Source: Tsukamurella tyrosinosolvens (lineage in GTDB: Bacteria > Actinomycetota > Actinomycetes > Mycobacteriales > Mycobacteriaceae). Taken from it: a DNA stretch of 64,000 bases. Numbering within the stretch: position 1 is the first letter of the stretch; every line of letters starts with the position of its first letter. A model generated the notes under the pieces. It was not told where the DNA came from. It made no database searches and saw only the letters and a list, made by a program, of their open reading frames with translations. The position numbers and the translations under genes are program-made. Positions 4,127 through 61,154 of this stretch are shown piece by piece. The stretch covers positions 1,488,001 to 1,552,000 of the forward strand of contig NZ_FNSA01000003.1 in the NCBI RefSeq assembly GCF_900104775.1, read 5' to 3'.

Positions 4127-4184
4127 ATGCTCGCGCCCGGTCTGCCGGAAACACGCTGGCCACGGCGGGCCTACGAGCACGGCA

Positions 4185-5411: not shown

Positions 5412-5533
5412 GATGCACCCTCCGATAAGTGGCAAGCCTGGACTGTTTGTCGAGTATGCCACGGAGTGGCTGTTACTTAAATGGAATTTTCCCCTGGTTT
5501 TGACAATAAGGATGATGCGGTGCCGTCCCGGTG

Positions 5534-10313: not shown

Positions 10314-10314
10314 C

Positions 10315-10362
10315 CTTGCAATGGTACAAGAGGCTGACTAATATTGGTCAGAGAATCTGACC
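10315..10362 (+). promoter_or_regulatory. Promoter with overlapping MarR-type operators
   Basis: A near-consensus promoter faces the plus strand: -35 TTGCAA at 10316-10321 and -10 TAATAT at 10339-10344, with a 17-base spacer. GGTCAGA-GAA-TCTGACC, a perfect 7-bp inverted repeat, sits directly after the -10 at 10346-10362. A second, overlapping dyad pairs CTGAC (10334-10338) with GTCAG (10347-10351). An imperfect palindrome CTTGCA-ATGG-TACAAG covers the -35. Binding there would block transcription. The neighbouring MarR protein is the obvious candidate to bind; that assignment is inference. Confidence 0.7.
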
Positions 10363-10375
10363 GATGGAGGTCGTC

Positions 10376-11020: not shown

Positions 11021-11029
11021 CCCGCGGCG

Positions 11030-12067: not shown

Positions 12068-12111
12068 AGTACCGGTATAAACGGACTAGGGTCCGAATCT
12101 ATTCCGGTGGC

Positions 12112-14405: not shown

Positions 14406-14426
14406 CCGTGCAGTCCTTCTGTGCGG

Positions 14427-15611: not shown

Positions 15612-15712
15612 GTCGGCCTTCCGTTGGGGGAGCGGTGGATACGAAGCGCCAGTTCACCACCGCGCGGTCCCGGAGGCCAGGTTTCGACTCGCGCTGCGTC
15701 GAACGTGCGGAC

Positions 15713-15734
15713 CTACCGGTCAGTAGCTAAGCTA
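15713..15734. promoter_or_regulatory. Palindromes between ssuD and the carboxylic acid reductase gene
   Basis: Two dyads lie side by side: an imperfect CTACCGGTCAGTAG (10 of 14 positions symmetric) at 15713-15726, and the perfect TAGCT-A-AGCTA at 15724-15734. They lie 44-65 bp upstream of the chosen reductase start and about 100 bp from ssuD. This is the kind of site a TetR-type repressor would use. No regulator gene is adjacent, so the binder is unknown. Confidence 0.35.
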
Positions 15735-15777
15735 GAGAAAGAGTTAGTTAGAGTTCCGTAGTGAAATGAGGTGTCAG

Positions 15778-19083: not shown

Positions 19084-19162
19084 TCCGCCGTCCGCGGTGT
19101 GACACGCGCGCCGCGGAACGGCCAGTCATCCACAACTAAGCGTATGTAACTTCTTTTCTCCA

Positions 19163-19199
19163 CAGGGCCCGCCCGGGACGCCGTTCCGGGCGGGCCCTG
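19163..19199 (+). terminator. Strong hairpin after the carboxylic acid reductase gene
   Basis: A perfect 14-bp GC-rich inverted repeat, with arms 19163-19176 and 19186-19199 and a 9-base loop, lies 80 bp after the stop codon. There is no T-run, as is common for actinobacterial terminators. Confidence 0.7.
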
Positions 19200-19263
19200 C
19201 ACGCGAGACTCGGCGACGACGGCCGGGAACCGCCGACCGTCGCGAATCGACGAGGAGGCGACC

Positions 19264-19827
19264 ATGCCCGGGGTGCTTGTTTTCGCAGCGGGGAACGTCA
19301 CGAATGATCTGACCTACCGGGAGTCGGCCCGCGATCAGCGGCACGACTTCCTGAGCTTCACGATGGCGGCCAACAACGGCTACCTGGACGACAACGGCGA
19401 GTGGAAGCAGACCAGCACGGTCTGGCTCAACGTCAAGGCCTTCGGCGCGCTGGCCCGCAACGCGCGCGCCGTGATCGCCAAGGGGCGGCCGGTCATCGTG
19501 CACGGCGAGCTCAAGCACGAGACCTTCGACGGTGCCGACGGGCAGCGCCACAGCTCGCTCGACCTCAAGGCCGACGCGATCGGCCTCAACCTGCGGATGT
19601 GCGCGAGCCAGTACGTCGGCACGGGGGAGCGGTACCGCGAGGTCACTCCGCCGCCGCTCGAGACGGTCTCGGCCGGGCCGGACACCGCCCCCGCCACCGG
19701 GGACGGCGGCGTTCACGGCGAGGGCGAACCCGGGCGCGACGGGCTGGTCGTCGTCCAGGGTTTCGCGGAGGGCGGCGACGCTGCCGGCCGCGAGCCGGCA
19801 GCGGTGGGCGGCGCGCCGGACTACTAG
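19264..19827 (+). CDS. Single-stranded DNA-binding protein paralogue (SsbB-like)
   Basis: A 187-residue protein with an N-terminal OB fold of the SSB family: AAGNVTNDLTYRES, FTMAANNGYLDDNGEWKQ, TVWLNVKAFGALARNA and KGRPVIVHGELKHETFDGADGQ. The C-terminus ends in GGAPDY and lacks the acidic DDDIPF-type tip that recruits replication partners. This suggests it is the accessory paralogue of mycolata rather than the housekeeping SSB. It is a single gene after a strong terminator. Confidence 0.85.
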   Translation: MPGVLVFAAGNVTNDLTYRESARDQRHDFLSFTMAANNGYLDDNGEWKQTSTVWLNVKAFGALARNARAVIAKGRPVIVHGELKHETFDGADGQRHSSLDLKADAIGLNLRMCASQYVGTGERYREVTPPPLETVSAGPDTAPATGDGGVHGEGEPGRDGLVVVQGFAEGGDAAGREPAAVGGAPDY

Positions 19828-48722: not shown

Positions 48723-49037
48723 CGTTCGGTCCTTAAGCCCCGCTTGTTACGCGCCAGTCGGTCCGAGGCGGCGCCGGCGCGGGCCGGGAGCCCGGGTGGG
48801 CGGGCCGCGCCGCACCCCTCGGATCGAGCGTCGTCGCACGAGTAGATCGCGGCCCGGGCGAGCGCCGCGAGAGTGGCCGACTACTCGATTCCGGCACCGA
48901 GTACTACCCGGGAGGGGAGCGGGGGCCGCGCCGTCGCGCCCGGTCCGGTGCCCGCCCACGGGCGCCGGTCGGTAGGCTGGTGTCGTTTGCCCCCGGCACA
49001 CCGGTGGGTCGTTTTCGCGTGAGAGCAGGCAGGGACT
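48723..49037. other. Intergenic region upstream of the PKS operon and the original ettA start
   Basis: No gene is seen. It contains the host promoter region of ettA: TAGGCT at 48973-48978 has the TAnnnT form of actinobacterial -10 elements and lies 60 bp before the remnant GTG. An imperfect dyad pairs ACTACTCG (48880-48887) with CGAGTACT (48898-48905). The same ACTACTCG/CGAGTAG motif recurs at 34655-34730. Confidence 0.4.
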
Positions 49038-49070
49038 GTGGCTGAATTCATTTACACGATGAAAGTGTAG
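49038..49070 (+). pseudogene. ettA: Displaced 5' end of ettA (ten codons then stop)
   Basis: GTG at 49038 encodes MAEFIYTMK, identical to the first nine residues of the intact EttA at 59481, then V and a TAG stop at 49068-49070. The nucleotide match to the intact start is 26 of 30 over 49034-49063 against 59477-59506. All four differences fall at third codon positions. This is the host start of ettA, cut off by insertion of the element. Confidence 0.85.
49053..49063 (+). other. attL core of the integrated element
   Basis: TACACGATGAA is repeated exactly at 59496-59506 in the same codon position of ettA. The 10,443-bp distance between copies defines the element. The crossover lies within or next to this 11-bp identity. 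Confidence 0.75.
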
Positions 49071-49205
49071 AAGCCGCTCCATCTCTCGTTCGAAAAGTCA
49101 ATAGACAATCCGGTATTCCCAGCTCAGACAGCGTGTTTACCGGCGTGCCGAATGTCTGAAATCCGGCATCATAACGGCAAGATCGGCAGGGTTTGCTACC
49201 TCGTA

Positions 49206-49223
49206 TGGGGCTATCGTGGGGCT
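49206..49223 (+). repeat. Left integrase arm-type repeats
   Basis: Two direct copies of TGGGGCT start at 49206 and 49217, eleven bases apart. The right end of the element has the same pair with the same spacing at 59417-59434. Paired arm sites at both ends are typical of tyrosine integrase att regions. Confidence 0.6.
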
Positions 49224-49267
49224 GCGGGGGCTATTTACTGCTAGACTGGCCCCAGGAGGTAAATGAA

Positions 49268-50329
49268 ATGGCGAGTCAGCGAACCAAACCGTCCGGTGCT
49301 GTGGTGTGGCGGGCGAGGTGGCATGGGAAGGAGAAGGAGTTCCCGACCGAGGCCGAAGCCCGCGAGTACGAAAACAACCGCAAGGGCAAGCGTCAGGCCA
49401 CCGTCGGCCCGCGCGTCGACACGTGGACAGTGCGGCGTGCCGTCGAAGAGCACATGGAGGCCGCGGAGGAAGGCAGCAGCACCCGCGCCGGTCGTAAGCA
49501 GCTCTTGGACAATCTCGGGGCTCTCGAGTACCTGAGGATGGATCGCGTTACGCGTGAGCACGTCGAGGAATGGATCGAGGAGCTGACGACGGGGCGTCCG
49601 TGGAAGGGTGATAAGCCGCTTGCGGTGTCTACGGTGCGGACCCTGCGCCGCATTCTCGCCAGTCTGTTCAACGCGGCCATCGAGGATGGGCACCTTGAGC
49701 GCAATCCGTGCCGCCTGCGCCGCGACAAGAAGGGGCGGACGGTGGCGCGTGCGATCTCGCCGTCGGAGATCCCGACCAAGATTCAGGTGCGCGAGTTGAT
49801 CGAGTCCACGACGGACCCACAGCTAGCGCTGATGTTTCGCGTGGCGGCGACAACAGGTATCCGCATCGCGGAGCTGACCGGCCTTCGCGTCCGCTCGGTC
49901 GATGTCGACGGCAGGCGCTTGCACGTCGAAGCGCAGAGCCGCCTGGGAGGTGCCGAGTGGGCGTGGTCAAGCTTGAAGACTCCGAACGCGATCCGCACGG
50001 TGCCGCTCACTGACGCGCTCGCGCTCGCCTTGAAGGACCATATCGACAAGCTCGACCGCGATCTCGACGCGCCGCTGTTCCTGACCCAGACCGGACGGCA
50101 GTTCTCTCCGACGAACGCGGGCAACCGCCTGCGGTCGCTCGGCGCACCGATCACCAAGTGGCACAGCTTGCGTCACTTCTACGCGTCGACCTTGTTTGAC
50201 CAGGGGAGAACTGCTGTCGCCGTGTCTAAGCTGCTCGGGCACGCCTCGCTCGCGGTCACGATGGAGACCTACCTCCACATCATCCCCGGCGAGGACGACG
50301 CCACCCGCGCTGCCCTGGCCGACCTCTAA
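49268..50329 (+). CDS. int: Tyrosine recombinase/phage integrase
   Basis: A 353-residue integrase. The N-terminal arm-binding region is KPSGAVVWRARWHGKEKEFPTEAEA-like. A SAM-like core-binding domain includes LDNLGALEYLRMDRVTREHVEEWIEEL. The catalytic domain has Arg in TTGIRIAELTGL, HSLRHFYAS (H-x-x-R), LGHASL and the nucleophile in TMETYLHI. ATG 49268 follows GGAGGT. It lies just inside the left attachment site, as expected, and points away from it. While integrated, the host ettA promoter upstream could read into it. Confidence 0.93.
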   Translation: MASQRTKPSGAVVWRARWHGKEKEFPTEAEAREYENNRKGKRQATVGPRVDTWTVRRAVEEHMEAAEEGSSTRAGRKQLLDNLGALEYLRMDRVTREHVEEWIEELTTGRPWKGDKPLAVSTVRTLRRILASLFNAAIEDGHLERNPCRLRRDKKGRTVARAISPSEIPTKIQVRELIESTTDPQLALMFRVAATTGIRIAELTGLRVRSVDVDGRRLHVEAQSRLGGAEWAWSSLKTPNAIRTVPLTDALALALKDHIDKLDRDLDAPLFLTQTGRQFSPTNAGNRLRSLGAPITKWHSLRHFYASTLFDQGRTAVAVSKLLGHASLAVTMETYLHIIPGEDDATRAALADL

Positions 50330-50551
50330 GGCGCGTATGTGACATTGGTCACAGCAATGGTGGCGACCAACGGATACGGGTCTGGTCGCGGTGCTGCGGC
50401 GACAGTGGCCGAGGGGCTGAGATAGGCAGCCGTTCGCCACGCGAACAGCTCAGAATCGTTTCCGCTCAACCTCCAAAACGACGCTAGTGTTCAGGGATCA
50501 AGTCCGGCGATTCCGGCACACATGACCAGCATCGACGTTTGGAGAAAACGA

Positions 50552-50737
50552 TTGAGTATCAACCTTATTGAGCGAACGGCGCTCACGCCGGAAGACGTGG
50601 CAACCCGCCTCGGCGGAAGTGCCCGCAAGGTCCGCCAGATGATGGCTGACGAACTGATGCCCGGTTTCCGCTGGGGCGGTAGCTGGCGAGTCTGGGATAC
50701 CGACCTTGCCCTCTACGAGAAGGGGCTCGCGCGATGA
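50552..50737 (+). CDS. Excisionase-like helix-turn-helix protein
   Basis: A 61-residue protein with an AlpA/MerR-type HTH_17 pattern: LTPEDVATRLGGSARKVRQMMADELMPGFRWGGSWRVWDTDLALY. The TTG start at 50552 is preferred because GGAG precedes it by seven bases. An in-frame ATG at 50522 would add ten residues but lacks a ribosome site. Its place after the integrase suggests a recombination directionality factor. The stop overlaps the next start (ATGA 50734-50737). The 222 bp between int and this gene shows no gene. Confidence 0.7.
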   Translation: MSINLIERTALTPEDVATRLGGSARKVRQMMADELMPGFRWGGSWRVWDTDLALYEKGLAR

Positions 50738-51228
50738 GCGACATCGCACGCGAGCTTCTACACGCGGACCGGAACAGCGGCCCCGGCATCCTGCATTACG
50801 AGTGGTTGCGGGGAGGCCTGGACGAGGGCGAGTTGACGCGCCATATCGGCGAGGTCTGGTCAGCCTCGGAGTTCCCCGAGGGTGCGCTAGACGACGATGC
50901 CTCTACGTCTCGGTGGGAGTGGGACGAGATGTTCCGCGCAGCCGGATACACGTCGGACGGCAAGCTCGCGGCCCCGCCCGAGACGATTAACCTCTACCGT
51001 GGTGGCTCGACCTGCGACGGCATGGCCTGGACCACCAAGAGGACAACCGCCGAGTGGTTCGCGCAGCGGTGGGGCGAGGGTGTCGTCTGGGAACACACCT
51101 TCTCTGGTGGCGAGTTGTTGGCGCGGATCAAGGGACGCGGCGAGAGCGAGTACGTGGTGTCTGCGGACGCCCTACTGCGCATGGCGACGGACGCGCCTGT
51201 GGTGCCGCCACTGCGGAGCGAGCTGTAA
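50734..51228 (+). CDS. Possible ADP-ribosyltransferase-fold protein
   Basis: A 164-residue protein. Features resemble the R-S-E class of ADP-ribosyltransferases: INLYRGG with Arg89, GMAWTTKRTTAEWFAQRW at about 97-113 where the STS strand and following helix would be, and GESEYVV with an E-x-E at 137-139. Phage proteins of this class modify host or rival proteins. The assignment rests on motif order only, with no structural check. It is translationally coupled to the excisionase-like gene and followed by an XRE regulator, an arrangement that would also suit a toxin-antitoxin pair. Confidence 0.45.
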   Translation: MSDIARELLHADRNSGPGILHYEWLRGGLDEGELTRHIGEVWSASEFPEGALDDDASTSRWEWDEMFRAAGYTSDGKLAAPPETINLYRGGSTCDGMAWTTKRTTAEWFAQRWGEGVVWEHTFSGGELLARIKGRGESEYVVSADALLRMATDAPVVPPLRSEL

Positions 51229-51296
51229 CTCGCTCGCGGCCCCTGCGGTCCCGGCCTACGATGAACGGTTACGCCGTCGATCACCAGGAGGTCCGC

Positions 51297-51785
51297 ATGT
51301 CCGATCACCCCGACGCCGAGATGCACCCCGAGCGCGGCCTTTGGGGCGAGGATGCTCGCAGGGCTGGCCGCGAGCTGTTCGCCAAGTACGCCCCCGGCAC
51401 CGTCTTCCGTCGCGAGGACGACCCGGACCACGGGCGCAAGTTCCTCGCGGCGTACGCGAGCGTCTGGGACGACATCGAGGCCGATCCCAGCGTGGCCGAG
51501 AACCTTCGGGTCCGGTCTGACTTCATGATCGGCATTGGGGAGCAGGTCACCCGGCGCGGCTGGTCCCAGGTCGAAGCCGCCCGGCAGCTTGGAGTGTCGG
51601 AATCGCGGGTGTCGGATCTCTTCGCGGGGAAGATCGGCAAGTTCACCCTTGACGACCTGGTGGCGATCGGCGTCAAGGTCGGAGTGCGCGCCGTGGTCGA
51701 GACCGTCCACGACAAGGCCGACGTTCACCGAGTGGCCGGGCGCGTGGCCGACTGGTCGAGCGAGCTGAATAGACGGCTCCAGTAG
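51297..51785 (+). CDS. XRE-family regulator (HTH_37/HigA-like)
   Basis: A 162-residue protein. The C-terminal half matches the XRE/HTH_37 pattern: VWDDIEADPSVAENLRVRSDFMIGI, then GWSQVEAARQLGVSESRVSDLFAGKIGKFTLDDLVAIGVKVG. Such proteins are antitoxins or repressors. ATG 51297 was chosen because AGGAGG precedes it; ATG 51261 is in frame upstream. It could be the element repressor, or an antitoxin for the ART-like protein encoded just upstream. Confidence 0.75.
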   Translation: MSDHPDAEMHPERGLWGEDARRAGRELFAKYAPGTVFRREDDPDHGRKFLAAYASVWDDIEADPSVAENLRVRSDFMIGIGEQVTRRGWSQVEAARQLGVSESRVSDLFAGKIGKFTLDDLVAIGVKVGVRAVVETVHDKADVHRVAGRVADWSSELNRRLQ

Positions 51786-51799
51786 CCCGACCGAAGCCC

Positions 51800-51823
51800 A
51801 AGTCTCCGACGTGTTGGAGACTT
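51800..51823 (+). terminator. Hairpin after the XRE gene
   Basis: AAGTCTCC and GGAGACTT form a perfect 8-bp stem with an 8-base loop, 15 bp after the XRE stop. The 3' arm ends in CTTTC. It is a possible terminator separating the immunity/excision genes from the small-ORF operon. Confidence 0.5.
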
Positions 51824-51914
51824 TCACCTCATGGCGGGAACTGGTCAAGTCGCTCGCCATAACCCATTTCTAAACCCATTGCAATTGATCCCAGGTGATT
51901 TACGCTGAGATTCA

Positions 51915-52091
51915 ATGGACGAATACAAGAGCCTTCGCGCTCTCACCCATAATTCCGGCGTGGACTATTCCGCTGCCGTTTCAGCGATCGAGACCGGCCT
52001 CATTCCTGGCCGCTCGGTCAATTCCCTCTATTACGCTGACCCTGCGGCATTCCGTCGGTGGGTCCGCGAGAACCGGAGCACCAATGACTGA
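51915..52091 (+). CDS. Small hypothetical protein, 58 aa
   Basis: ATG at 51915 opens a 58-residue frame beginning MDEYKSLRALTHNSG and ending RRWVRENRSTND. It looks like a minimal DNA-binding protein of the excisionase size class (SVDYSAAVSAIETGLIPGRS-type helix pair, then a short wing), but I cannot assign a family. It is the first of four frames that overlap end to start, with 8 bp shared with the next. Confidence 0.5.
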   Translation: MDEYKSLRALTHNSGVDYSAAVSAIETGLIPGRSVNSLYYADPAAFRRWVRENRSTND

Positions 52092-52293
52092 TTCATGCAC
52101 CTGTAAGCGCGACGAGCAGGAACTCGCAGAACGCGAACATCACCGCGTATCGGGGGAGCTATCCAAGCTTTTCGAGCTGACGTCCCCCTCCGCGCTGCGA
52201 TCATTTCGCGACCGTGTGGACGGCTACCTAGACAAAGATGTTATTCGTGGGCGTCTGCTCGAGGCCGTCAACTGGGAGGGCTGGCAGGAGTGA
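52084..52293 (+). CDS. Small hypothetical protein, 69 aa
   Basis: ATG 52084 overlaps the stop of the previous frame. The 69-residue product has CTCKRDEQELAEREHHRV near the N-terminus and is charged and probably helical. Two cysteines, C-T-C, at residues 5 and 7 might bind metal. No family is recognised. Confidence 0.5.
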   Translation: MTDSCTCKRDEQELAEREHHRVSGELSKLFELTSPSALRSFRDRVDGYLDKDVIRGRLLEAVNWEGWQE

Positions 52294-52487
52294 GCGCCGT
52301 TAGTTGGCACACTTCCCTCGATCCGGCTGCGGCCTCGCGTGAGAAGGCGGCGCATGACGCGATCCTCGAATACGCCCTCACGAAGCTCACTAAGCGGCGG
52401 CTCTCGCGTCTCCCACTTGCGACTCGCGCCGAGCTGGCAACGCTCCTGAGGATCGCTGTGGACGACCTGGAGAACGTCGATGCATAG
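52290..52487 (+). CDS. Small hypothetical protein, 65 aa
   Basis: GTG 52290 overlaps the previous stop as GTGA. The 65-residue product is mostly helical by composition (EKAAHDAILEYALTKLTKRRL, TRAELATLLRIAVDDLENV). No family is recognised. Tight overlaps on both sides support translation. Confidence 0.5.
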   Translation: MSAVSWHTSLDPAAASREKAAHDAILEYALTKLTKRRLSRLPLATRAELATLLRIAVDDLENVDA

Positions 52488-52794
52488 CCACGAACCTAGC
52501 GGCTGCCCGATCATTGGATGCGACTGGCAGCGGGCTGCGGCGCGTTTCTTCCCGCCGCAGTTCGATTCCGTCATCTGGTCCCTGTTTCAGCATTCGTTCG
52601 CGAAGGTCGATCGCGGGGCGCTGTACTCCGCACCGGGTCGAGACCTCATAGTGGAGGAGACCGGCCTGTCGTCCGCAACCGTCACCCGACGCATCGCGGC
52701 GATGCGGGCAGCCGGTTGGATTCGGTATGCGCACAGTGGGAGTGCGGACAATCCGGCTTGGTATGAACTGCGCATCCCGGACCGGACTGCCTAA
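52480..52794 (+). CDS. Winged-helix DNA-binding protein, 104 aa
   Basis: A 104-residue protein. LIVEETGLSSATVTRRIAAMRAAGWIRYAHSGSADNPAWYEL is a clear winged helix, like those in plasmid and phage replication or partition proteins. It overlaps the preceding frame by 8 bp. It may assist the replication protein encoded next or regulate the operon. Confidence 0.6.
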   Translation: MHSHEPSGCPIIGCDWQRAAARFFPPQFDSVIWSLFQHSFAKVDRGALYSAPGRDLIVEETGLSSATVTRRIAAMRAAGWIRYAHSGSADNPAWYELRIPDRTA

Positions 52795-52905
52795 CGTGCG
52801 CGCATTTCCGCAGGCCTATCGGCGTGTCGTCTAACTGTTGGTCTCGACACTCTTCGTGCTTCTAAAACAGAACCGATGGCGCTGTGTGGCCTGGCGCGAA
52901 ACGAT

Positions 52906-52922
52906 GAATAGAGTATCTATTC
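52906..52922. promoter_or_regulatory. Palindromic operator upstream of the replication gene
   Basis: GAATAGA-GTA-TCTATTC is a perfect 7-bp inverted repeat with a 3-base spacer, 65 bp before the replication gene start. It is a good candidate operator for the element's XRE repressor or for the winged-helix protein. Confidence 0.55.
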
Positions 52923-52936
52923 GCCTGAAATGAAAA

Positions 52937-52973
52937 GATCCCGCCCCATTGCTGTCCAGGCTAGGGCGGGATC
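52937..52973 (+). terminator. Hairpin in the leader of the replication gene
   Basis: GATCCCGCCC (52937-52946) pairs with GGGCGGGATC (52964-52973) over a 17-base loop. It ends directly before the GGAGAAG ribosome site. It may end upstream transcription, or act as an attenuator or as the target of a control RNA for replication. Confidence 0.5.
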
Positions 52974-52987
52974 GGAGAAGAACTGAC

Positions 52988-53902
52988 TTGAGTATAAGCG
53001 ATTCTCAGCGCCTGCGCTATGTGACCGATGTGAACGTGGAGCGATACCCCCACCGAAGGGTGGCAGCATACCCGGCCGCAGACGGGAAGCCTCGCACGTT
53101 CGCATGGTTGCGCACGCTCCTATGTGATCCGTCGGTTAGTGCTGCCGGGTACAGGGTGGGCGGGTTCCTGCATTGCATCGCTGACCAATACACGGTGGAC
53201 CCGTACTGCGGCGCGGAGTGGGCGGCTGGCGAACTGGGCGTGTCGGTCAGCACGGTAGAGCGCGGCCTCGAGAGCCTGCGCGGGCATGGCTACATCGTCC
53301 AGACAAAGCGGGGCGGATCCAAGAGCGGCAACGCCTCGGACTTCCTCTTGACCTTCCCGTCGATCGCGCCCGCGACGGGCGATGACGACGTACCCGTCAA
53401 AACTGAGGGGAACGCCAACGGTGTACCCGTCAATATTGCGGGGAACGTAGACGTACCCGTCAGAACTGAGGGGAACGTACCCGTCAATTCTGCGGAGGAG
53501 TGCCCGTCAATATTGACGGACCATCTCCCAATGCAATCTCCCAATAGAAACTCCCAATCTGAAGAACACTCGTCCGCGCGCTTCGCTGGCGCAGACCAGC
53601 GTGAGGGGATCTCCGAGGGATGGACGCCGAACAAGGCCCACGCTGCGAAGTGCCCGCGCGGCCTGTCCGTCGGTGAAGTGGGCGAGAAGTTCCGCGAGCT
53701 TGCTATTGAGCGCAAGCTCACCAGCGCCGACTGGGACAAGAAGTTTGGCGGGTTCCTCGGCTACCTCGATGGTGTGGTTGAGCGCTACGCCAGTCGCGAG
53801 CTGACGGGACCGATCGTTTGGGCCGACCATCTGGAGGACTACCTCTTTGGCGGTGCGGAGCAGTTCACGCCCAAGGGCTTGCGGATCGAGTGCCCGTTCT
53901 AG
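52988..53902 (+). CDS. Replication initiator-like winged-helix protein
   Basis: A 304-residue protein. The N-terminal third has a winged helix, WAAGELGVSVSTVERGLESLRGHGYIVQTKRGG, as in phage replication initiators. The middle (residues about 133-190) is low-complexity sequence with repeated VPV-x-TEGN units, because the DNA there is a run of iterons. The C-terminal part (VGEVGEKFRELAIERKLTSADWDKKFGGFLGYLDG) resembles the helicase-loader-interacting ends of phage replication proteins, a weak similarity. TTG 52988 was chosen because GGAGAAG precedes it by seven bases. It probably binds the repeats within its own gene. Confidence 0.7.
   Translation: MSISDSQRLRYVTDVNVERYPHRRVAAYPAADGKPRTFAWLRTLLCDPSVSAAGYRVGGFLHCIADQYTVDPYCGAEWAAGELGVSVSTVERGLESLRGHGYIVQTKRGGSKSGNASDFLLTFPSIAPATGDDDVPVKTEGNANGVPVNIAGNVDVPVRTEGNVPVNSAEECPSILTDHLPMQSPNRNSQSEEHSSARFAGADQREGISEGWTPNKAHAAKCPRGLSVGEVGEKFRELAIERKLTSADWDKKFGGFLGYLDGVVERYASRELTGPIVWADHLEDYLFGGAEQFTPKGLRIECPF
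53390..53563 (+). repeat. Probable replication origin: iterons plus 13-bp repeats inside the replication gene
   Basis: Four 24-base repeats beginning GTACCCGTCA start at 53390, 53423, 53453 and 53477. A fifth, partial copy at 53500-53520 contains the perfect 16-bp palindrome CCGTCAATATTGACGG (53504-53519). Immediately after, three copies of CTCCCAAT start at 53525, 53538 and 53551, exactly 13 bases apart, in AT-richer DNA. Iterons followed by 13-mers inside the initiator gene is the layout of the lambda origin in gene O. Confidence 0.65.
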
Positions 53903-53930
53903 TCCGCCAAGGCCGCGCCCGCCGCTCAAC

Positions 53931-53974
53931 CGAGCCGCATTCGAGCCCTAGTCGAGCCTCATTCAAGCCGCCGA
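53931..53974 (+). repeat. Four 11-bp direct repeats after the replication gene
   Basis: CGAGCC-type units start at 53931, 53942, 53953 and 53964 (the last as CAAGCC), one helical turn apart. They form a phased binding array just after the replication gene. They may belong to the origin or to a packaging or control site. Confidence 0.55.
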
Positions 53975-54170
53975 AAAGCCTCTGACCTTGAGGTTCGCCA
54001 AGGTGTCACGCCGAGGCGCTGCGGACGTGTTCACGCGAACACCGCTCTGACAGCTAGAGCGAACAGGCCTCGCAAAAACGGACCGCTGAAAGTGCCGGCG
54101 AACAACTCATTGCAGCTCAGAAGCTATGCAACTCCGTTAAGTAAGCGGACCATCACATTAGGAGAACAAG
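53975..54170. other. Noncoding region with inverted repeats before the structural genes
   Basis: No gene is seen. GTGTTC-ACGC-GAACAC (54027-54042) is a perfect dyad, and GCTCT/AGAGC (54044-54060) follows directly. These may be operators or part of a packaging recognition site. AGGAG before 54171 is the ribosome site of the next gene. Confidence 0.4.
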
Positions 54171-54485
54171 ATGACAGACGACTACAGGAACCTAGCTGAC
54201 CAGCTCGGTGATCACATGAGACCCGAGGACAGGCGCGGTCCCGCGGCCCACCGAAGCTACGGGCGATTCCAAAATGAGTGGGATGCAACCAGATTCAGCG
54301 ACACGCGCCACCGCGTGATGTCCCGCCGAACTACCTCGCTCGAGGACGCGCTACTCGAATTGCACGGCTACACACTGGAACCCGGCCAAACGTCGCGCGT
54401 CGAGAACCGGTATCTAGGCAATATTCGGGAACAGCGGTTCCCCTTCCATACAGCGCCCGAGGAGGCCACTAGCAATGACGACTGA
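54171..54485 (+). CDS. Hypothetical element protein, 104 aa
   Basis: A 104-residue hydrophilic protein beginning MTDDYRNLADQLGDHM and rich in Arg, Asp and Glu. It has no recognised domain. The ribosome site TTAGGAG is good. It overlaps the next gene by 11 bp, so it belongs to the scaffold/capsid operon. A head-assembly or size-determination role is possible from position only. Confidence 0.55.
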   Translation: MTDDYRNLADQLGDHMRPEDRRGPAAHRSYGRFQNEWDATRFSDTRHRVMSRRTTSLEDALLELHGYTLEPGQTSRVENRYLGNIREQRFPFHTAPEEATSNDD

Positions 54486-55422
54486 CTACATCATCGAGGC
54501 AGACGAAGCCGACGAGGACGACGTGATCGGCACCCGGCAGGATGTCGAGGAGGCCGACGACGAGGCCGACGAGCTGGAGTCGAACCGCGAAGCGCAATTG
54601 CGGGTGCGCCTGCGCGAGGTGGACGCGAGCATCGAGGCCGCCCGGAGCATTGCGGCAGATGCGGCTAGGTCCGTCGTGGCCGCTTTCGCAGCGCCGTACC
54701 TGGCGATCCCGGACGACCTGTTCGGCGTCGGTGGGTATGTGGCGGAGGACCTTCTACGGGAGGACGGCACCGTCGATTTCGCCGCCATGCACGACGCGCT
54801 GCGATCTCTGCTCGGTGAACGTCCGGGCCTCGCCGGTAAGCGCGCCGTGCCGTCGCCGGTCACGCCTGGCGATGCTGCCGACGCCGCCGATGCTCCGCGC
54901 GCGCATTGGATGCAGACAGTGCTCGATACCGCCCGTGAGGCCGCAGAGGCCGGGTCGGGGGAGATCGACGCCGACGCTTCAAATGAGGCACCCGCATGGC
55001 AGCTCTTGCGCGAGCAGGCCGACGCCGCGCCAAAGCGAGAGATCGCCCAGAGGTTGAGAGTGAAGGCGAGTACTTCCGAGCTGGAGCACATTGAGGGACG
55101 GCGCGACGCGATCCATCGAGCCCACATCACTGCGATCGCGGCCTCGGTCCTGGGCCGTGGCGAAGATCTATTCGATGTCGGCGGCTCGCAAGTGGCGGAC
55201 ATGCTCGACGGAACAGGCAGTGTCGACGCCGAACGTGTACGCGGGACTGCCCGTGAGCTGGCGAACAGCCGTCCCGGACTGCGCCGGGTTAAGCGACCGC
55301 CCGTGTACCCGAACACCGGAGTAGGCCAAACGCTGGTGGTCGATCGCGGCCCAACGGCTCCCAACGTCGTCGGTGTCGCGCTTAACGAAATGACCCGACG
55401 GAGGCAGCTCGGACTGGCGTAG
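54475..55422 (+). CDS. Scaffold-like protein with an internal domain duplication
   Basis: A 315-residue acidic, Ala-rich protein directly before the capsid gene, the usual place for a scaffold. The N-terminal 40 residues are highly acidic (EADEADEDD, EEADDEADELE). Two copies of a roughly 39-residue unit occur at about 81-119 and 231-269: both contain DLFxVGG, then V/ADxLxxxGxVD and end in RPGL. The unit reminds me of the C-terminal region of actinophage scaffold proteins. The duplication is evident from sequence; the scaffold role is inference. Confidence 0.55.
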   Translation: MTTDYIIEADEADEDDVIGTRQDVEEADDEADELESNREAQLRVRLREVDASIEAARSIAADAARSVVAAFAAPYLAIPDDLFGVGGYVAEDLLREDGTVDFAAMHDALRSLLGERPGLAGKRAVPSPVTPGDAADAADAPRAHWMQTVLDTAREAAEAGSGEIDADASNEAPAWQLLREQADAAPKREIAQRLRVKASTSELEHIEGRRDAIHRAHITAIAASVLGRGEDLFDVGGSQVADMLDGTGSVDAERVRGTARELANSRPGLRRVKRPPVYPNTGVGQTLVVDRGPTAPNVVGVALNEMTRRRQLGLA

Positions 55423-55432
55423 GCTGCAATCA

Positions 55433-55458
55433 CTTGCACACTGCGTCAAATGTGCAAG
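55433..55458 (+). promoter_or_regulatory. Inverted repeat between scaffold-like and capsid genes
   Basis: CTTGCACA and TGTGCAAG form a perfect 8-bp stem with a 10-base loop, 10 bp after the scaffold-like gene. It may be a terminator or an operator. The 90 bp before the capsid gene is AT-rich and could hold a late promoter. Confidence 0.4.
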
Positions 55459-55548
55459 ACTAAGAATGTCGGGTTGAGTGACTCCCCGTAGCGATGCCGT
55501 TCTGTGAACCTCGCTCATTGATATTTCCCTAGAAGCAAGGTTTACAAC

Positions 55549-56382
55549 ATGAGCAATACTACGCTCAATTCCGGTGCGATCCTTTCACCCGATGACATGA
55601 AGGAAAACTTCCTCGCACCGCTCGAAAAGAAGTCGATCGCCATGCAGGTTTCGCACGTCGAGCACGCAAATGCGGGCCACGCTGCGCTGCCGATGATGGG
55701 TAAGACTTCCGCCGAGTGGCTCGATGAAGGCGAAGAGCTGACAGTCGAGAATGTCCCTTTCAACGAAATCCGCGTGCCACACATGAACGCGGGCAAGCTG
55801 TTGACCGCGACCCGACAGCTGCTTAATGATTCGGCGTACGATCTTCCGACGCTGCTTAGCAATTCGCTTATCGATGCCTACGCCGAACTGGTCGATAAGA
55901 CCTTCTTTGGCACCACCACGCCAAAGGGGCCAAAGGGCATCGAGAGCGTAAGCGGTCGAACCATCGTCGAGGCCGACGAGTACTCGCTCGATCCGTTCCT
56001 TGACGCCCTCGGCGCGGTCGAGGCAGAGCGTGCAAACCCTCGGTTCATCGTCATGGGTCCGGAGCTGGCGACCAAGCTGCGCAAGCTCAAGGTCAGCGCG
56101 GGATCGAATCAGTACATTCTCCAGTCAGATCCCGGTTCCGCGTGGCGAAACACCATCGCGGGAATCCCGGTGCTTACGTGTGCGGATGTCGCTGCCGAGA
56201 CTGCGCATTTGATCGACCCCGACTATGTGTTCATGAGCGTTCGCGAGGATGTCGAGGTCGAGGCCGATGCATCCACCTTCTTTACGTCCGTGCGAACCGC
56301 TATCCGATCATTCGGGCGCATCGGCTGGGTATTCCCACGACCGGAGAAGCTGGCAGCGGTCAAGTTCAATGTCACGCCCTAG
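55549..56382 (+). CDS. HK97-family major capsid protein
   Basis: A 277-residue capsid protein. HK97-fold features include VPFNEIRVPHMNAGKLLTATRQLLNDSAYDLPTLLSNSLIDAYAELVDKTFFGTTTPKG (N-arm, E-loop and spine helix), RFIVMGPELATKLRKLK and IAGIPVLTCADV, with P-domain strands to the end. It lacks a long N-terminal delta domain and no prohead protease gene is nearby, so assembly would rely on a separate scaffold, plausibly the preceding gene. It is the only clear structural gene in the element. Codon use is much less GC-biased than in host genes. Confidence 0.85.
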   Translation: MSNTTLNSGAILSPDDMKENFLAPLEKKSIAMQVSHVEHANAGHAALPMMGKTSAEWLDEGEELTVENVPFNEIRVPHMNAGKLLTATRQLLNDSAYDLPTLLSNSLIDAYAELVDKTFFGTTTPKGPKGIESVSGRTIVEADEYSLDPFLDALGAVEAERANPRFIVMGPELATKLRKLKVSAGSNQYILQSDPGSAWRNTIAGIPVLTCADVAAETAHLIDPDYVFMSVREDVEVEADASTFFTSVRTAIRSFGRIGWVFPRPEKLAAVKFNVTP

Positions 56383-56392
56383 CTGAATACTC

Positions 56393-56440
56393 CTAGCAGG
56401 CTCCCAAACCGTAGGCATCCGGTATTTCCTGGCCTGCTAG
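56393..56440. other. Long-loop inverted repeat after the capsid gene
   Basis: CTAGCAGGC (56393-56401) and GCCTGCTAG (56432-56440) form a perfect 9-bp dyad around a 30-base loop. Its role is unknown; candidates are an RNA structure or a packaging signal. Confidence 0.35.
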
Positions 56441-56530
56441 ATGGCAGCATTGCGCCGCATCGAGTCAGTTCCTGGATAGCTCGGGCTCAATGCGGGCGGT
56501 CCTCCTAACCGTCGCATGCCGCCAATAGAG

Positions 56531-56563
56531 CAGCCCCACCATAGCAAGACCATGGTGGGGCTG
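56531..56563. terminator. Bidirectional terminator between capsid gene and minus-strand genes
   Basis: CAGCCCCACCAT (56531-56542) pairs perfectly with ATGGTGGGGCTG (56552-56563), followed by TTCCTTT. It lies between convergent transcription units and can serve both. Confidence 0.8.
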
Positions 56564-56573
56564 TTCCTTTGCG

Positions 56574-56762
56574 CTATCGGTTGGTCCCAAGCGTGCAACC
56601 TGCGGAGTCATATCCATATTTCTGGCAGATCTCGCGCGCCTTCTCGTTCGACTCTTCGAACTTCTTGTTGTCGCTGTTGATTGACCAGATAATGAGGATA
56701 ACGAGCGCCGCTAAGAGTACGCCCACCGCAACAGAAAGTGTGCGCTTGATTTCAGTGCTCAT
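56574..56762 (-). CDS. Small single-helix membrane protein, 62 aa
   Basis: A 62-residue protein. A basic N-terminus (MSTEIKR) and one membrane helix (TLSVAVGVLLAALVILIIW) are followed by a hydrophilic tail with two cysteines (EICQKYGYDSAGCTLG). No family is recognised. Small one-helix proteins in phages may be holin-like or act in superinfection exclusion; I cannot choose between these. A GAAGGG ribosome site lies rather far upstream. Confidence 0.55.
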   Translation of the reverse strand: MSTEIKRTLSVAVGVLLAALVILIIWSINSDNKKFEESNEKAREICQKYGYDSAGCTLGTNR

Positions 56763-56889
56763 AGTGTGCGGAATTCCCTTCGTTTGTTGTGGTTGCGAGG
56801 GTACCGCCGTCCGGGCGTGGCGATGTGCCTTTACTGAGATATTGCAATCCTGCACTATTGCTTAGCGAAATGATCGGGATGACCTGGTG

Positions 56890-58245
56890 TTAGCCCTTGA
56901 CGGTCGCAAAGATGCGGGCAAAGTCCTGTTGCGACTTCGACATCTGCTCACGCTCGATGCGGGTGCCCTGCCCAACTGTGGCAATGTCCTCGATCTCGCA
57001 CCCGATGCTCGCACCGTGCGCGCTCTTAGCGTGCTGCTTCGGTGCCGTGACGGCTTTGCGTGTACGCCTCACGCGCGGCTGCAATACCTGTAGTGCCTGC
57101 TGGTCGATATCGAGAGCGATCTCCCAGAGGTGGTGCATCGAGGGCATGAACATGCGGGCCGTCACGTCCTCGCCGCGCCGAGTGCGGATGACGCGACCCA
57201 TGATTTGCGTCATGAGCAGCGGAGTCGCCTTATTTGTGGAATAGACAAGCGTCGTGAGCCGGGGGATATCCGTGCCCTCACTGACCAGCATCACGGAAAT
57301 CAACCATGGATCGGACGACCGGCGAAACCTGTCGATCACTGCGGCCCCGTCGTCGCTGCCGACTGCCACAGGTGCCTCGATTCCCGTGGTCTCCGCGAGG
57401 ACTCGGCGGACCATGTAGGCGTGCTCGACATCGCGCGCAACGATCAAGCCGCCCGCATCGGGGATCTCGCGCCGCTGCATCATCAGGTGCGCGTGTGCCT
57501 CTGCCAGCACTCCGCGCAACCACTCGCCATCGTCCAACGTCGACCGCAGAACGGACCCGCGAGCCGACCGGGGGATAGGCCGCTCGATGCTCACCTTGAC
57601 CGACTGCGGACCCTTCGCGTCCTGCCAGTTCGCAGTGGTCGACACCGCCACGAACTCGACAGGCCGACACACCTTGTCGCGCAAGGCATCGGCGTAGCTG
57701 TAGGACACATCCGCGATCATTTCCCCGTCGGCAGTCCACCGCGCGAACGGGATCGCCTCGCGGGCATCGGTGCGCCAGGGCGTGCCCGAGAGCAGTAGCC
57801 GCTTGCGAGCGCCCGAGAAGGCCCGCGTGAGCGCCAGGCCGTACTTGGAGTCCTCGGCGGCGTGATGCACTTCGTCAAGGATCACCAACGTGCCCGAGCG
57901 CCGGGTGTCTCGGTCGATCGCCTCGCCGATCCGCGCGCCCGTCGCGCCCAACAGGCTGGCGTACGTCAGGACCAGACCCTCGCAACCGTCCGTGTCGATG
58001 CCCTCGGCTGGCAGAGCTGCCGCGAGCTTCAACAGGCCGTGAGCCGCCCACTGAGACGCCACAGCGAGCGTTGGAGCTACCACGATCACCCGGCGGGCCT
58101 TGCCGCTGTCGAGGTACTCGCGAGCCGCAGTGAGGGCGAACGTCGTCTTGCCCGCACCAGGACAAGCGACAGCAAGAAAACTCGAGCGACGGGAAATACG
58201 GAACTGCTCGACGGCCTCACGCTGCCATTCGCGGAGTTGCATCAC
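56890..58245 (-). CDS. DEAD/DEAH-box superfamily 2 helicase
   Basis: A 451-residue SF2 helicase. The Q-like opening is LREWQREAVEQF. Walker A is CPGAGKTT near residue 30, motif II is DEVHH, motif III is LLSGTPWR, motif V SEGTDIPRL and motif VI QIMGRVIRTRRG. The C-terminal 70 residues are basic and unrelated to the core. It starts three bases after a 109-residue gene, so the two are co-transcribed. Helicases of this form occur in phages and satellites for replication and in defence systems. Its role here is not determined. Confidence 0.85.
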   Translation of the reverse strand: MMQLREWQREAVEQFRISRRSSFLAVACPGAGKTTFALTAAREYLDSGKARRVIVVAPTLAVASQWAAHGLLKLAAALPAEGIDTDGCEGLVLTYASLLGATGARIGEAIDRDTRRSGTLVILDEVHHAAEDSKYGLALTRAFSGARKRLLLSGTPWRTDAREAIPFARWTADGEMIADVSYSYADALRDKVCRPVEFVAVSTTANWQDAKGPQSVKVSIERPIPRSARGSVLRSTLDDGEWLRGVLAEAHAHLMMQRREIPDAGGLIVARDVEHAYMVRRVLAETTGIEAPVAVGSDDGAAVIDRFRRSSDPWLISVMLVSEGTDIPRLTTLVYSTNKATPLLMTQIMGRVIRTRRGEDVTARMFMPSMHHLWEIALDIDQQALQVLQPRVRRTRKAVTAPKQHAKSAHGASIGCEIEDIATVGQGTRIEREQMSKSQQDFARIFATVKG

Positions 58246-58248
58246 TGC

Positions 58249-58578
58249 CTACTCTGCCTCATGCTCTCGCTCGATCTGCGCGAACTTCTCACGCGTCGCG
58301 TCCTTGATGAACTCGACAGTCCGGTCGTGGGCGAGTGCGGTACCTCGGTATTCCTCGCCGAGTTGTCGCACCGACACCTCGTATACCTGCTCGTACAGCT
58401 CGCGCGGAATGGCGATGCTGTCCTCGGCAATAGCGACATCAGCTTCGGCGAGAACGTTCTCCACGCTTGCACTCAACTCCGACTCGCGCTCTTGCGCCTC
58501 GCTTGCTCGCTTGGCGAGTTCGCCGAGTTCATGAAACATGGCCTCTGCTTGCTCGCGAGAGATCTCTTCATTGCTCAT
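58249..58578 (-). CDS. Helical hypothetical protein, 109 aa, partner of the helicase
   Basis: A 109-residue protein with a high Glu/Ala content, probably helical or coiled coil (REQAEAMFHELGELAKRASEAQERESELSASVENVL). No family is recognised. ATG 58578 follows AAAGGA. It is the first gene of the minus-strand pair with the helicase, with a good promoter candidate upstream. Confidence 0.6.
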   Translation of the reverse strand: MSNEEISREQAEAMFHELGELAKRASEAQERESELSASVENVLAEADVAIAEDSIAIPRELYEQVYEVSVRQLGEEYRGTALAHDRTVEFIKDATREKFAQIEREHEAE

Positions 58579-58633
58579 GTTTGTTCGTCCTTTCGTGAGG
58601 TGTGTGCACAGAATTCCTGTGCCGTGAGCCGCA

Positions 58634-58662
58634 ATCAAACCACGGTTCATGTCAGGCGTCAA
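58634..58662 (-). promoter_or_regulatory. Candidate promoter of the helicase pair
   Basis: On the minus strand TTGACG (58657-58662) and TTTGAT (58634-58639) are separated by 17 bases, and lie 56 bp before the 109-residue gene. The -35 is near consensus; the -10 is weak. Confidence 0.4.
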
Positions 58663-58887
58663 AGCTGGTCACCCTGGGGGAGTATCCCCTGGTCCCCTAC
58701 GGTTCCCGTGACGCTCATCCGGTGTCTGCCAGTGCGTATACGGGTTATAGGGGTGCCGAGATCAGCACGAATCAAAGCAATTCCCCACCTGCCCGGAGTC
58801 GTCAATTCTCAAATGGTCGAGCAATTACTCGGCGCATTCACAAGACCGCCTGCGCACTCAATTCGTGGCAGTCTTGATAAGGACAAA
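58663..58887. other. Noncoding stretch upstream of the helicase pair
   Basis: No gene is seen in this stretch. CCTGGGGG and TCCCCTGG near 58673-58692 form an imperfect dyad upstream of the promoter candidate, which could be an operator. The remainder shows nothing that I can name. Confidence 0.35.
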
Positions 58888-58931
58888 CGAAAGCCGCCCA
58901 ATCTTCTCGGGGAGAAGACGGGCGGCTTTCG
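58888..58931. terminator. Nested hairpin terminator after the 70-residue gene
   Basis: CGAAAGCCGCCC (58888-58899) pairs perfectly with GGGCGGCTTTCG (58920-58931). An inner hairpin TCTTCTC/GAGAAGA (58902-58918) stacks inside it. On the minus strand it follows the 70-residue gene. Confidence 0.7.
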
Positions 58932-58945
58932 TCGTTGTGGTGCGG

Positions 58946-59158
58946 CTACACCGCCGCGAGCACCATCTCGATCAACTGCACCGCTTGGTCGCGGGTCAGC
59001 TCGATGGTCGAGTGGTTGGCGTCATCGCCCCGCCCCTCGGACATGAACAGCGCGATCCGCTCGCCGTCGTCATCGTGGACTCGGGCAACCTCCAACGTGC
59101 CGCCGCAGGGGCTCTCGCTAAAGATGACGCCTTCGGTCGCGATCTCGGGCAGGTGCAT
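58946..59158 (-). CDS. Hypothetical protein, 70 aa
   Basis: A 70-residue acidic protein, MHLPEIATEGVIFSESPCGG, then VHDDDGERIALFMSEGRGDD and a C-terminal helix QAVQLIEMVLAAV. GGAG precedes the start by eight bases, and the strong terminator follows the stop, which supports a real gene. The function is unknown. It is the last gene before the right end of the element. Confidence 0.6.
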   Translation of the reverse strand: MHLPEIATEGVIFSESPCGGTLEVARVHDDDGERIALFMSEGRGDDANHSTIELTRDQAVQLIEMVLAAV

Positions 59159-59480
59159 GGACAGACTCCAATCGGTTGGGGGAGTGGGGAGAGGGGCCGG
59201 ACTCGGCTGCATCGCAGACGTTAGGCGCTCTGTCCGAGATTGTCGATAGATAAGTCGAAGATGCATGTACTGGAATTTCAACTCCGAGATGCAACTCGCA
59301 CGCGGCATGGCTGGATGCCGCGATACTCCGTCGACCGCCTAGGCTGGAGTCATGCAAGCTCACCTCTCATCGCCCCACGCTGCCTTGGCAAAGGCGGCAG
59401 TGTTGGCGAGCCCGTGTGGGGCTGGAGTGGGGCTAGAGGGCGTTACCAACGTGAAGTTCGCAGGTCAGAAGGGTTAGACT
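59159..59480 (+). promoter_or_regulatory. Right end of the element: substitute upstream region for ettA
   Basis: No gene is seen. TAGGCTGGAGTC at 59340-59351 closely matches TAGGCTGGTGTC at 48973-48984, the host -10 region left behind at the other end. The element thus appears to bring its own promoter. AGAAGGG (59468-59473) provides a ribosome site seven bases before the ettA GTG. The attP arm repeats lie between. Confidence 0.5.
59417..59434 (+). repeat. Right integrase arm-type repeats
   Basis: TGGGGCT starts at 59417 and 59428, the same sequence, orientation and 11-base spacing as the left pair. The flanks also agree (GT[A/G] before the first copy). Confidence 0.6.

Positions 59481-61154
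<1,674 letters not shown>

What the first reader, a model, noticed from the sequence alone, without database searches (positions are those of the whole stretch)
49064..59506. Reduced, capsid-encoding element with no packaging or tail genes: a probable actinobacterial phage satellite
Seen: integrase, excisionase-like protein, replication protein, scaffold-like protein and one HK97-type capsid protein within 10.4 kb, with defined ends. Not seen: terminase, portal, protease, adaptors, tails, lysis genes. Capsid-forming phage-inducible islands are known to keep capsid and replication genes and borrow tails from a helper, but those described usually also carry terminase and portal. Keeping scaffold plus capsid alone would be a distinct, leaner strategy, for example to build a resized or interfering capsid around the helper portal.
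Basis: partly seen in the sequence, partly recalled or inferred. Interest (0 to 1): 0.88.

Follow-up and report, generated by a model that had tools for sequence, protein, structure and literature searches.

The report
Phage satellite carrying its own capsid
A 10.4 kb mobile element in a Tsukamurella chromosome carries genes to integrate, replicate and build a small phage-type shell, but none to fill that shell with DNA or fit a tail, so it probably borrows those from a helper phage, as many related elements in this bacterial order appear to do.

Summary
A 10.4 kb element interrupts the 5' end of ettA in a Tsukamurella chromosome. It encodes an integrase, probable Xis and Rep, a scaffold and an HK97-type capsid; no terminase, portal, connector or tail gene was found. 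It is neither unique nor an obvious decayed prophage. Of 49 loci with an intact capsid of this size (48 relatives plus this one), 17 carry both large terminase and portal; 32, this one included, carry neither (one keeps a terminase scrap). Of 29 lean chromosomal relatives, 16 are bounded by repeats at 8.2-10.3 kb. Twelve deposited 11 kb 'phages' of Mycolicibacterium aichiense have the same capsid type. Two of the three I read, plus two chromosomal relatives and two viral contigs, carry the exact cos site of phage Herbertwm, isolated on that host. Best reading: a satellite that builds its own small capsid and borrows terminase, portal, tail and lysis. For this element, helper, packaging site and mobilisation are inferred, and its capsid's place in the tree is unsettled. 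Its scaffold is a fused tandem duplication. Integrase-plus-capsid elements of Mycobacterium are already called candidate PICIs, so this is a variant of a known kind; I did not find the terminase/portal split or shared cos in print.

The parts
49014..49063 (+). attL: native leader, start codon (49038) and first codons of ettA, cut off by the element; core TACACGATGAA 49053-49063
   Evidence: direct repeat; same sequence runs on into ettA in 10 of 16 genus genomes
49265..50329 (+). tyrosine integrase (start codon uncertain)
   Evidence: PF00589 3.9e-19, phrog_1 2.8e-55
50522..50737 (+). Xis-like small HTH protein
   Evidence: HTH_17 1.1e-4 below cut-off, phrog_66 6.9e-4
50734..51228 (+). 164 aa protein of unknown function
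   Evidence: phrog_4776 1.2e-12, unknown function
51261..51785 (+). XRE-type HTH regulator or antitoxin
   Evidence: HTH_37 1.1e-10; DNA 72% identical to antitoxin/HTH genes of M. abscessus prophages
51915..52794 (+). four small overlapping ORFs (58, 69, 65 and 104 aa; the last a winged-HTH protein)
52949..53902 (+). probable replication initiator (start uncertain) with five short repeats in its coding sequence at 53387-53515
   Evidence: phrog_1032 1.4e-3; Rep-like clusters of relatives; repeats
54171..54485 (+). 104 aa protein of the c11 family, encoded just before the scaffold
   Evidence: 7.9e-7 to the c11 HMM (small database); c11 in 8 of 32 lean rows
54475..55422 (+). scaffolding protein, 315 aa, two fused copies of a ~150 aa scaffold
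   Evidence: phrog_4708 6.2e-5; scaffold HMM twice, residues 8-125 and 127-312
55549..56382 (+). HK97-type major capsid protein, 277 aa
   Evidence: PF05065 and TIGR01554; model pLDDT 84 matching HK97-type capsids
56574..56855 (-). 93 aa protein, hydrophobic stretch seen by eye
   Evidence: no family above chance
56890..58245 (-). helicase of the DEAD/ResIII kind
   Evidence: phrog_16 1.1e-36, PF04851 1.5e-13
58249..58578 (-). 109 aa protein of unknown function
58579..58945 (.). longest non-coding gap; only a guessed place for a packaging site
   Evidence: inverted repeat near 58671 seen by eye; no match in viral contigs or phages
58946..59158 (-). 70 aa protein of unknown function
59457..59506 (+). 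attR: element-supplied leader and start codon (59481) of ettA; core 59496-59506
   Evidence: direct repeat; EttA NF008775 915 bits from 59481

Best explanation
It is an integrated phage satellite of a lean, capsid-encoding class. Shown: a bounded element in ettA with an integrase, probable Xis and Rep, a duplicated scaffold and an HK97-type capsid, without detectable terminase, portal, connectors or tail; and many relatives with the same split. Inferred: when a helper phage infects, the element excises, replicates with its own initiator and assembles a small shell from its own scaffold and capsid around the helper's portal; the helper's terminase fills the shell at a site that imitates the helper's cos, and the helper's tail and lysis genes finish the particle. 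The helper-cos step is supported by exact sequence in some relatives, not in this element. At about 10.4 kb the shell would be near the T=3 size predicted for tailed-phage capsids.
For: Element and empty site. Terminase and portal: both in 17, neither in 32 of 49 rows. Sixteen of 29 lean chromosomal loci bounded at 8.2-10.3 kb by exact repeats of 18 bp or more (no shuffle control). The largest unassigned protein of ten lean loci: six hit primase or helicase families, one only a family of unknown function, three nothing, none portal or terminase. Own scaffold in 29 of 32 lean rows. Capsid dN/dS 0.08 in one close lean pair. Herbertwm cos, exact 20-mer, in two of three M. aichiense satellite records read, 2 of 29 lean chromosomal loci, 0 of 17 terminase-bearing loci, and in 3 stretches of the viral collection, one of them Herbertwm. 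Tape measure, adaptor and stopper of those satellites resemble Herbertwm's at 62, 50 and 45%, the capsid hardly (23% over 109 residues).
Against: No transfer, particle or excision data for this element. It lacks the Herbertwm cos and any recognisable cos, and has no small terminase, adaptor or stopper hit, unlike the M. aichiense satellites. Its capsid is only 33% identical at best to the other lean rows and its place in three trees differs. One lean element keeps a terminase scrap and some relatives are broken. No second copy of the element was found.
Confidence: 0.6

Rival explanations
1. A Ccm-like factor: the capsid protein, with its scaffold, does not form the whole shell but mixes with the helper's capsid protein and forces small capsids, as SaPIbov5 Ccm does with phage phi12.
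For: Ccm is an HK97-fold capsid homologue carried by a cos satellite that uses its helper's machinery; it sits in the pentamers of the small shell (PMC8569155 abstract) and could not form satellite-sized capsids alone (PMC5052747 passages).
Against: 29 of 32 lean rows, this one included, bring their own scaffold, which a mixing subunit would not need; the capsid of the M. aichiense satellites is only 23% identical over 109 residues to that of the candidate helper.
Confidence: 0.2
2. A decayed cf-PICI or small prophage that lost terminase and portal and no longer moves.
For: Terminase-bearing relatives of about 10 kb exist, one in the same genome. L102 keeps a terminase scrap; L082 has a broken portal and L092-L095 broken capsids. 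In one tree the window falls with 16 of the 17 terminase-bearing rows and four phages at 96/81.
Against: All called genes of the element have open frames; 32 of 49 rows share the same absence and none has just one of the two genes intact; one clade of all lean capsids is not rejected, p-AU 0.356; close lean pair under purifying selection.
Confidence: 0.12
3. A domesticated compartment of the encapsulin kind that stores something other than the element's DNA.
For: The fold search also returns encapsulins (9fy6).
Against: The sequence hits phage capsid families and, up to E 1 in Pfam, no encapsulin family; the gene sits with a phage scaffold, an integrase and a Rep; the best structural hits are phage and GTA capsids.
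Confidence: 0.02

Closest known systems
Mycolicibacterium aichiense 11 kb 'phages' (Alyssa1, WillG, JSForest1 and nine more; OR387110-OR387121)
   Same: Size, integrase, HTH replication-like gene, scaffold then HK97-type capsid, no large terminase or portal annotated in the three records read or found in the two tested
   Different: Serine integrase; they add small terminase, adaptor, stopper and a 649 aa tape measure; two of the three read carry the Herbertwm cos; capsid 27-28% identical
Candidate PICIs of Mycobacterium (PMC10654092; passages read)
   Same: Defined there as integrase plus major capsid gene; some said to have scaffold, helicase or terminase genes; phiRv1 and phiRv2 counted among them
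   Different: Most mapped ones with tyrosine integrase sit in tRNA genes; this one sits in ettA of Tsukamurella; the passages do not divide elements by terminase and portal
cf-PICIs (defined in PMC10690885, passages; primary paper not held)
   Same: Satellite with its own capsid that takes the helper's tail
   Different: cf-PICIs encode portal, both terminase subunits, protease, connectors and HNH; none found here
SaPIbov5 with Ccm (PMC8569155 abstract; PMC5052747 passages)
   Same: Satellite carrying an HK97-fold capsid homologue while borrowing packaging machinery
   Different: Ccm mixes with helper capsid protein; here a scaffold comes with the capsid; sequences not compared
MulchRoom and MiniFlayer, Streptomyces satellites (PMC10690885; part of Results, one Discussion section and passages)
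   Same: Actinobacterial satellites with their own capsid and scaffold
   Different: They encode both terminase subunits, portal and adaptor, lack primases, and are 14.8 and 17.4 kb with direct terminal repeats

Membership tests
candidate Mycobacterium-type PICI (PMC10654092) | integration gene and major capsid gene in one phage-like region | tested here: met
   integrase and capsid; host genus is Tsukamurella, outside that study's stated scope
candidate Mycobacterium-type PICI (PMC10654092) | induction and transfer by a helper phage | not testable with these tools
   needs an experiment; the paper also says it is undetermined
cf-PICI | own portal and large terminase | tested here: not met
   no hit in six frames
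cf-PICI | own small terminase and HNH endonuclease | tested here: not met
   no small-terminase HMM hit; no HNH family hit; a diverged small terminase cannot be excluded
cf-PICI | own capsid gene | tested here: met
SaPIbov5/Ccm type | HK97-fold capsid homologue without terminase and portal | tested here: met
SaPIbov5/Ccm type | cos site of the helper in the satellite | tested here: inconclusive
   Herbertwm cos absent from this element; other helpers unknown; present in some relatives
SaPIbov5/Ccm type | co-assembly with helper capsid protein | not testable with these tools
   needs particles
lean class as defined here | integrase, capsid of 268-291 aa, no large terminase, no portal | tested here: met
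lean class as defined here | capsid shares descent with the other lean capsids | tested here: inconclusive
   one clade not rejected, p-AU 0.356, but unstable placement
phiRv1/phiRv2 | relation of the capsid to phiRv capsids | not tested
   phiRv sequences were not fetched

The most novel reading that the evidence does not exclude
The lean elements are a satellite strategy of their own, distinct from cf-PICIs: a capsid lineage of Mycobacteriales that builds a complete, very small (about T=3) shell on the helper's portal and is filled at a counterfeit helper cos. In this element the scaffold has been duplicated and fused, so that one half could act as an inner size gauge for an especially small shell.
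Probability: 0.38. Interest if true: 0.8.

Novelty: new variant of a known kind. Interest (0 to 1): 0.62.

Why it matters
It would fill the gap between satellites that only remodel the helper's shell and those that make a whole packaged head. A foreign capsid docking on the helper's portal would test how specific the portal-capsid match really is. The M. aichiense records together with Herbertwm are a helper-satellite pair predicted from sequence and ready to test, and a genome near 10 kb would put these shells near the T=3 class that has been called missing among tailed phages (PMC7762592).

Tried and rejected
Close relatives of the capsid: the single protein found none in viral contigs or genome contigs; alignment A3 had no stretch conserved enough. 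Structure of the conserved 104 aa protein: pLDDT 60, no conclusion. A helper in the own genome: the only other capsid locus found there is a second ~10.3 kb element with terminase and portal. The terminase search (phrog_2) gave that locus and three weak hits (E 5.6e-5 to 8.8e-4), and the portal search (phrog_12) gave none, although it missed the portal of the second element too, so absence of a resident helper is likely but not proven. Shared DNA between the two elements: only short pieces, best E 0.07. A cos in the element: none recognised; the inverted repeat near 58671 is a guess. Defence cargo: the helicase hits PADLOC helicase models (PbeA best, 1.7e-15), but of eight proteins scanned no other gave more than weak hits (best 1.7e-3). 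The first label 'prophage' for the 17 terminase-bearing rows was dropped after their gene maps showed no tail-like block; this was judged by eye from maps of about 20 kb, and the only tail HMM run on all of them, a tape-measure HMM built from three satellites, hit just those three rows.

Rows dropped before counts: of 57 rows with a capsid ORF of at least 250 aa, 8 with long or odd capsids (L035, L045, L082, L097, L105, L113, L114, L115) were left out of the 49. In a later check, of these 8 L035 and L115 have terminase and no portal hit, L082 a portal in pieces, and five have neither; so single-gene loci exist outside the 49. L079 (lean) was missed by my gene caller and is not among the 32; L089 is cut by a contig end; L092-L095 have broken capsids. 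The two kinds are defined by terminase and portal, so the split informs only in that no row of the 49 has exactly one of them. E-values from my scripts are for small databases (16 proteins, six frames of 49 loci). The terminase and portal HMMs were built from these same loci.
Full report
WHAT IS THERE. The window lies in a Tsukamurella chromosome: an exact 27-base stretch of its ettA leader occurs in seven named genome records, all Tsukamurella. Between a PKS-like gene (by eye) and ettA sits a 10.4 kb element. Its ends are a 50-nt repeat, 74% identical, at 49014-49063 and 59457-59506, with the exact core TACACGATGAA at 49053-49063 and 59496-59506. GC drops to 0.575-0.661 inside against 0.717-0.768 on the left; the right flank is 0.637-0.667. 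The element splits ettA from its native leader and supplies a new leader, start codon and first codons, so EttA stays whole (NF008775, 915 bits).

THE SITE. I searched 16 genomes of the genus with the first 400 bases of ettA. In 10 of 16 the window's left flank runs straight into ettA. Four are occupied: the window's own genome and three others, in which the same leader is separated from ettA by about 10.9, 11.3 and 11.6 kb. Two could not be judged because the leader was not found in them. So ettA is a shared site of different satellite-sized elements.

GENES. Family searches identify a tyrosine integrase, a weak Xis, an XRE regulator, a weak replication initiator, a scaffold and an HK97-type capsid on the plus strand, and a helicase with small unknown ORFs on the minus strand. 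The capsid model (pLDDT 84) matches phage, GTA, cf-PICI EcCI2 and SaPI1 capsids, and also an encapsulin. At 277 aa the capsid is shorter than the 398-440 aa capsids of five full phages compared; I infer that it lacks the cleaved N-terminal domain and relies on the separate scaffold. Herbertwm, with a 327 aa capsid and a scaffold, still has an annotated protease, so whether the missing protease is a loss stays open. The 315 aa scaffold matches the relatives' scaffold HMM twice, at residues 8-125 and 127-312 (6e-18 and 1e-27); no other protein in the 42 loci of that file does so. Two other lean loci, L078 and L106, have two separate scaffold genes. The 104 aa protein before the scaffold belongs to a small family (c11) seen in 8 of 32 lean rows.

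RELATIVES. The single capsid protein matched in 18 of 101 genomes and a capsid HMM in 62 of 397 genomes of the order. I fetched 60 stretches of up to 20 kb around such places. With the window and two phage-collection records, 57 rows had a capsid ORF of at least 250 aa; 8 with long or odd capsids were set aside, leaving 49 with capsids of 268-291 aa. A six-frame search with HMMs for large terminase and portal, plus nine terminase and portal sequences from full phages, gave both genes in 17 of 49 rows (all at E 9e-180 or lower) and neither in 32, the window among them. One of the 32, L102, keeps a terminase-like scrap of about 70 residues. Because the HMMs come from these loci, an unlike portal could be missed; I therefore scanned the largest unassigned protein of ten lean loci against PHROGs at E 1e-4. 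Six hit primase or helicase families (L036, L037, L077, L084, L085, L087), one only a family of unknown function (L103), three nothing (L040, L078, L098), none portal or terminase. Scaffold is present in 29 of 32 lean rows and small terminase in 13 of 32, two of those weakly. Outside the 49, two set-aside loci with long capsids have terminase without a portal hit and one has a broken portal.

NOT SIMPLE DECAY. Exact flanking repeats of 18 bp or more bound 16 of 29 lean chromosomal loci at 8.2-10.3 kb and 10 of 17 terminase-bearing ones at 9.4-11.3 kb (no shuffle control, and the repeat of L086 ends at a second element beside it). In one close lean pair dN/dS is 0.08 for the capsid and 0.27 for the scaffold; two more distant lean pairs gave 0.33 and 0.50 for the capsid. 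In a tree of the 49 capsids the two kinds fall on two sides of one branch (0 of 500 shuffles as low), but that branch has support of only 33/59 and the window sits beside it on a long branch. With full phages and long capsids added, the window pairs with Moraxella phage Mcat9 at 98/92, probably long-branch attraction, while the other 31 lean rows stay together at 87/91. Without Mcat9 and the long capsids, the window falls with 16 of the 17 terminase-bearing rows and four phages at 96/81; one clade of all lean rows is not rejected (p-AU 0.356), nor firmly the window with all terminase-bearing rows (0.085). The class is thus defined by gene content; common descent of this capsid with it is open. 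Broken relatives exist (L082, L092-L095).

THE HELPER LINK IN RELATIVES. Twelve records of about 11 kb, deposited as phages of M. aichiense, carry this capsid type. I read three. Two of the three, Alyssa1 and JSForest1, begin with CGACCGGTCGGTTATGCGGG, which is the join of the two ends of Mycobacterium phage Herbertwm, 51.5 kb, isolated on M. aichiense in the same town, seen joined in an IMG/VR contig identical to Herbertwm over the compared stretches. The third, WillG, does not contain it. The exact 20-mer also occurs in 2 of 29 lean chromosomal loci (L044, L076; no others with up to three mismatches), in 0 of 17 terminase-bearing loci, and in 3 stretches of the viral collection: the Herbertwm contig and two contigs of 11.0 and 12.5 kb that are lean satellites by gene content. 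In these six satellites it lies 59-297 bp upstream of the small terminase. In the three records read, tape measure, adaptor and stopper resemble Herbertwm's (61-62% over 350 residues, 49-51%, 42-45%), while the capsid hardly does (23% over 109 residues, E 0.014) and one scaffold is 28% over 116 residues. This is what is expected if terminase, portal and tail come from a Herbertwm-like helper and the shell does not. No experiment on these records was seen; a paper search for M. aichiense with satellite and phage found nothing.

HOW IT WOULD WORK. I infer excision by Int and Xis on infection, replication by its own initiator, a small shell from its own scaffold and capsid on the helper's portal, filling by the helper's terminase at a cos-like site, and a borrowed tail and lysis. 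The published size model gives a mean genome of 11.8 kb for T=3 and 18.0 kb for T=4, with wide overlapping intervals (PMC7762592, abstract and two sections). For this element the packaging site and helper are unknown: it lacks the Herbertwm cos even with four mismatches and shares only short stretches with phage records, the longest in its XRE regulator.

A SECOND ELEMENT IN THE SAME CELL. The own genome has one other capsid locus, at C3 about 3.159-3.170 Mb: an element of 10.3 kb with integrase, terminase, portal, scaffold and capsid, bounded by a 47 bp repeat, with no tail-like block in the mapped stretch. It looks like a cf-PICI. No resident full prophage was recognised.

KNOWN OR NEW. By the definition in PMC10654092 (integrase plus capsid) the element is a candidate PICI of a sort already reported in Mycobacterium; the passages I read mention scaffold and terminase genes in some, and the word portal does not occur in the main text. 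It fails the cf-PICI definition as given in PMC10690885. SaPIbov5 Ccm is the nearest worked-out precedent, and other PICIs with capsid homologues are mentioned in PMC6092414 (passages). Searches pairing satellites with Tsukamurella, mycobacteria, cluster A and cos and actinobacteria in an open-access library listed no title on the terminase/portal split or the shared cos; subscription papers, the primary cf-PICI paper among them, were not available. I rate it a new variant of a known kind.

Noticed in passing
L118 about 4571-14602 (own genome C3, about 3.159-3.170 Mb): A second ~10.3 kb capsid element in the same chromosome, this one with large terminase and portal and no tail-like block: a probable cf-PICI.
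   Followed up: partly
window 49038-59506; L155, L156, L157: The 5' end of ettA is an integration site shared by different 10-12 kb elements in at least 4 of 16 Tsukamurella genomes; each supplies its own start codon for EttA.
   Followed up: partly
L044:6870-6889, L076:7518-7537, L166:3590-3609, L167:7626-7645, L024:1-20, L164:1-20: Exact 20-base copy of the Herbertwm cos just upstream of the small-terminase gene of lean satellites.
   Followed up: yes
L024:8361-10310: The M. aichiense satellites carry a 649 aa tape measure protein like the 807 aa one of Herbertwm, perhaps to make a shorter tail.
   Followed up: partly
window 50734-51785: The XRE gene is 72% identical in DNA to genes annotated as antitoxin or HTH protein, next to a RelE-like toxin, in M. 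abscessus prophages; with the 164 aa ORF before it, it could be a toxin-antitoxin-like pair.
   Followed up: no
window 56890-58245: The element's helicase has homologues in 295 of 301 genomes of the family, about 40% identical in those listed, one on the own chromosome: a relative of a host helicase.
   Followed up: no
L102 about 11050-11470: A lean element keeps a scrap resembling about 70 residues of a large terminase, a hint that some lean elements arose by loss or recombination.
   Followed up: no
L086 about 3985-19607: Two integrases, two primase-like genes and two WhiB-like genes in a row suggest two satellites side by side; only one capsid lies in the fetched stretch.
   Followed up: no
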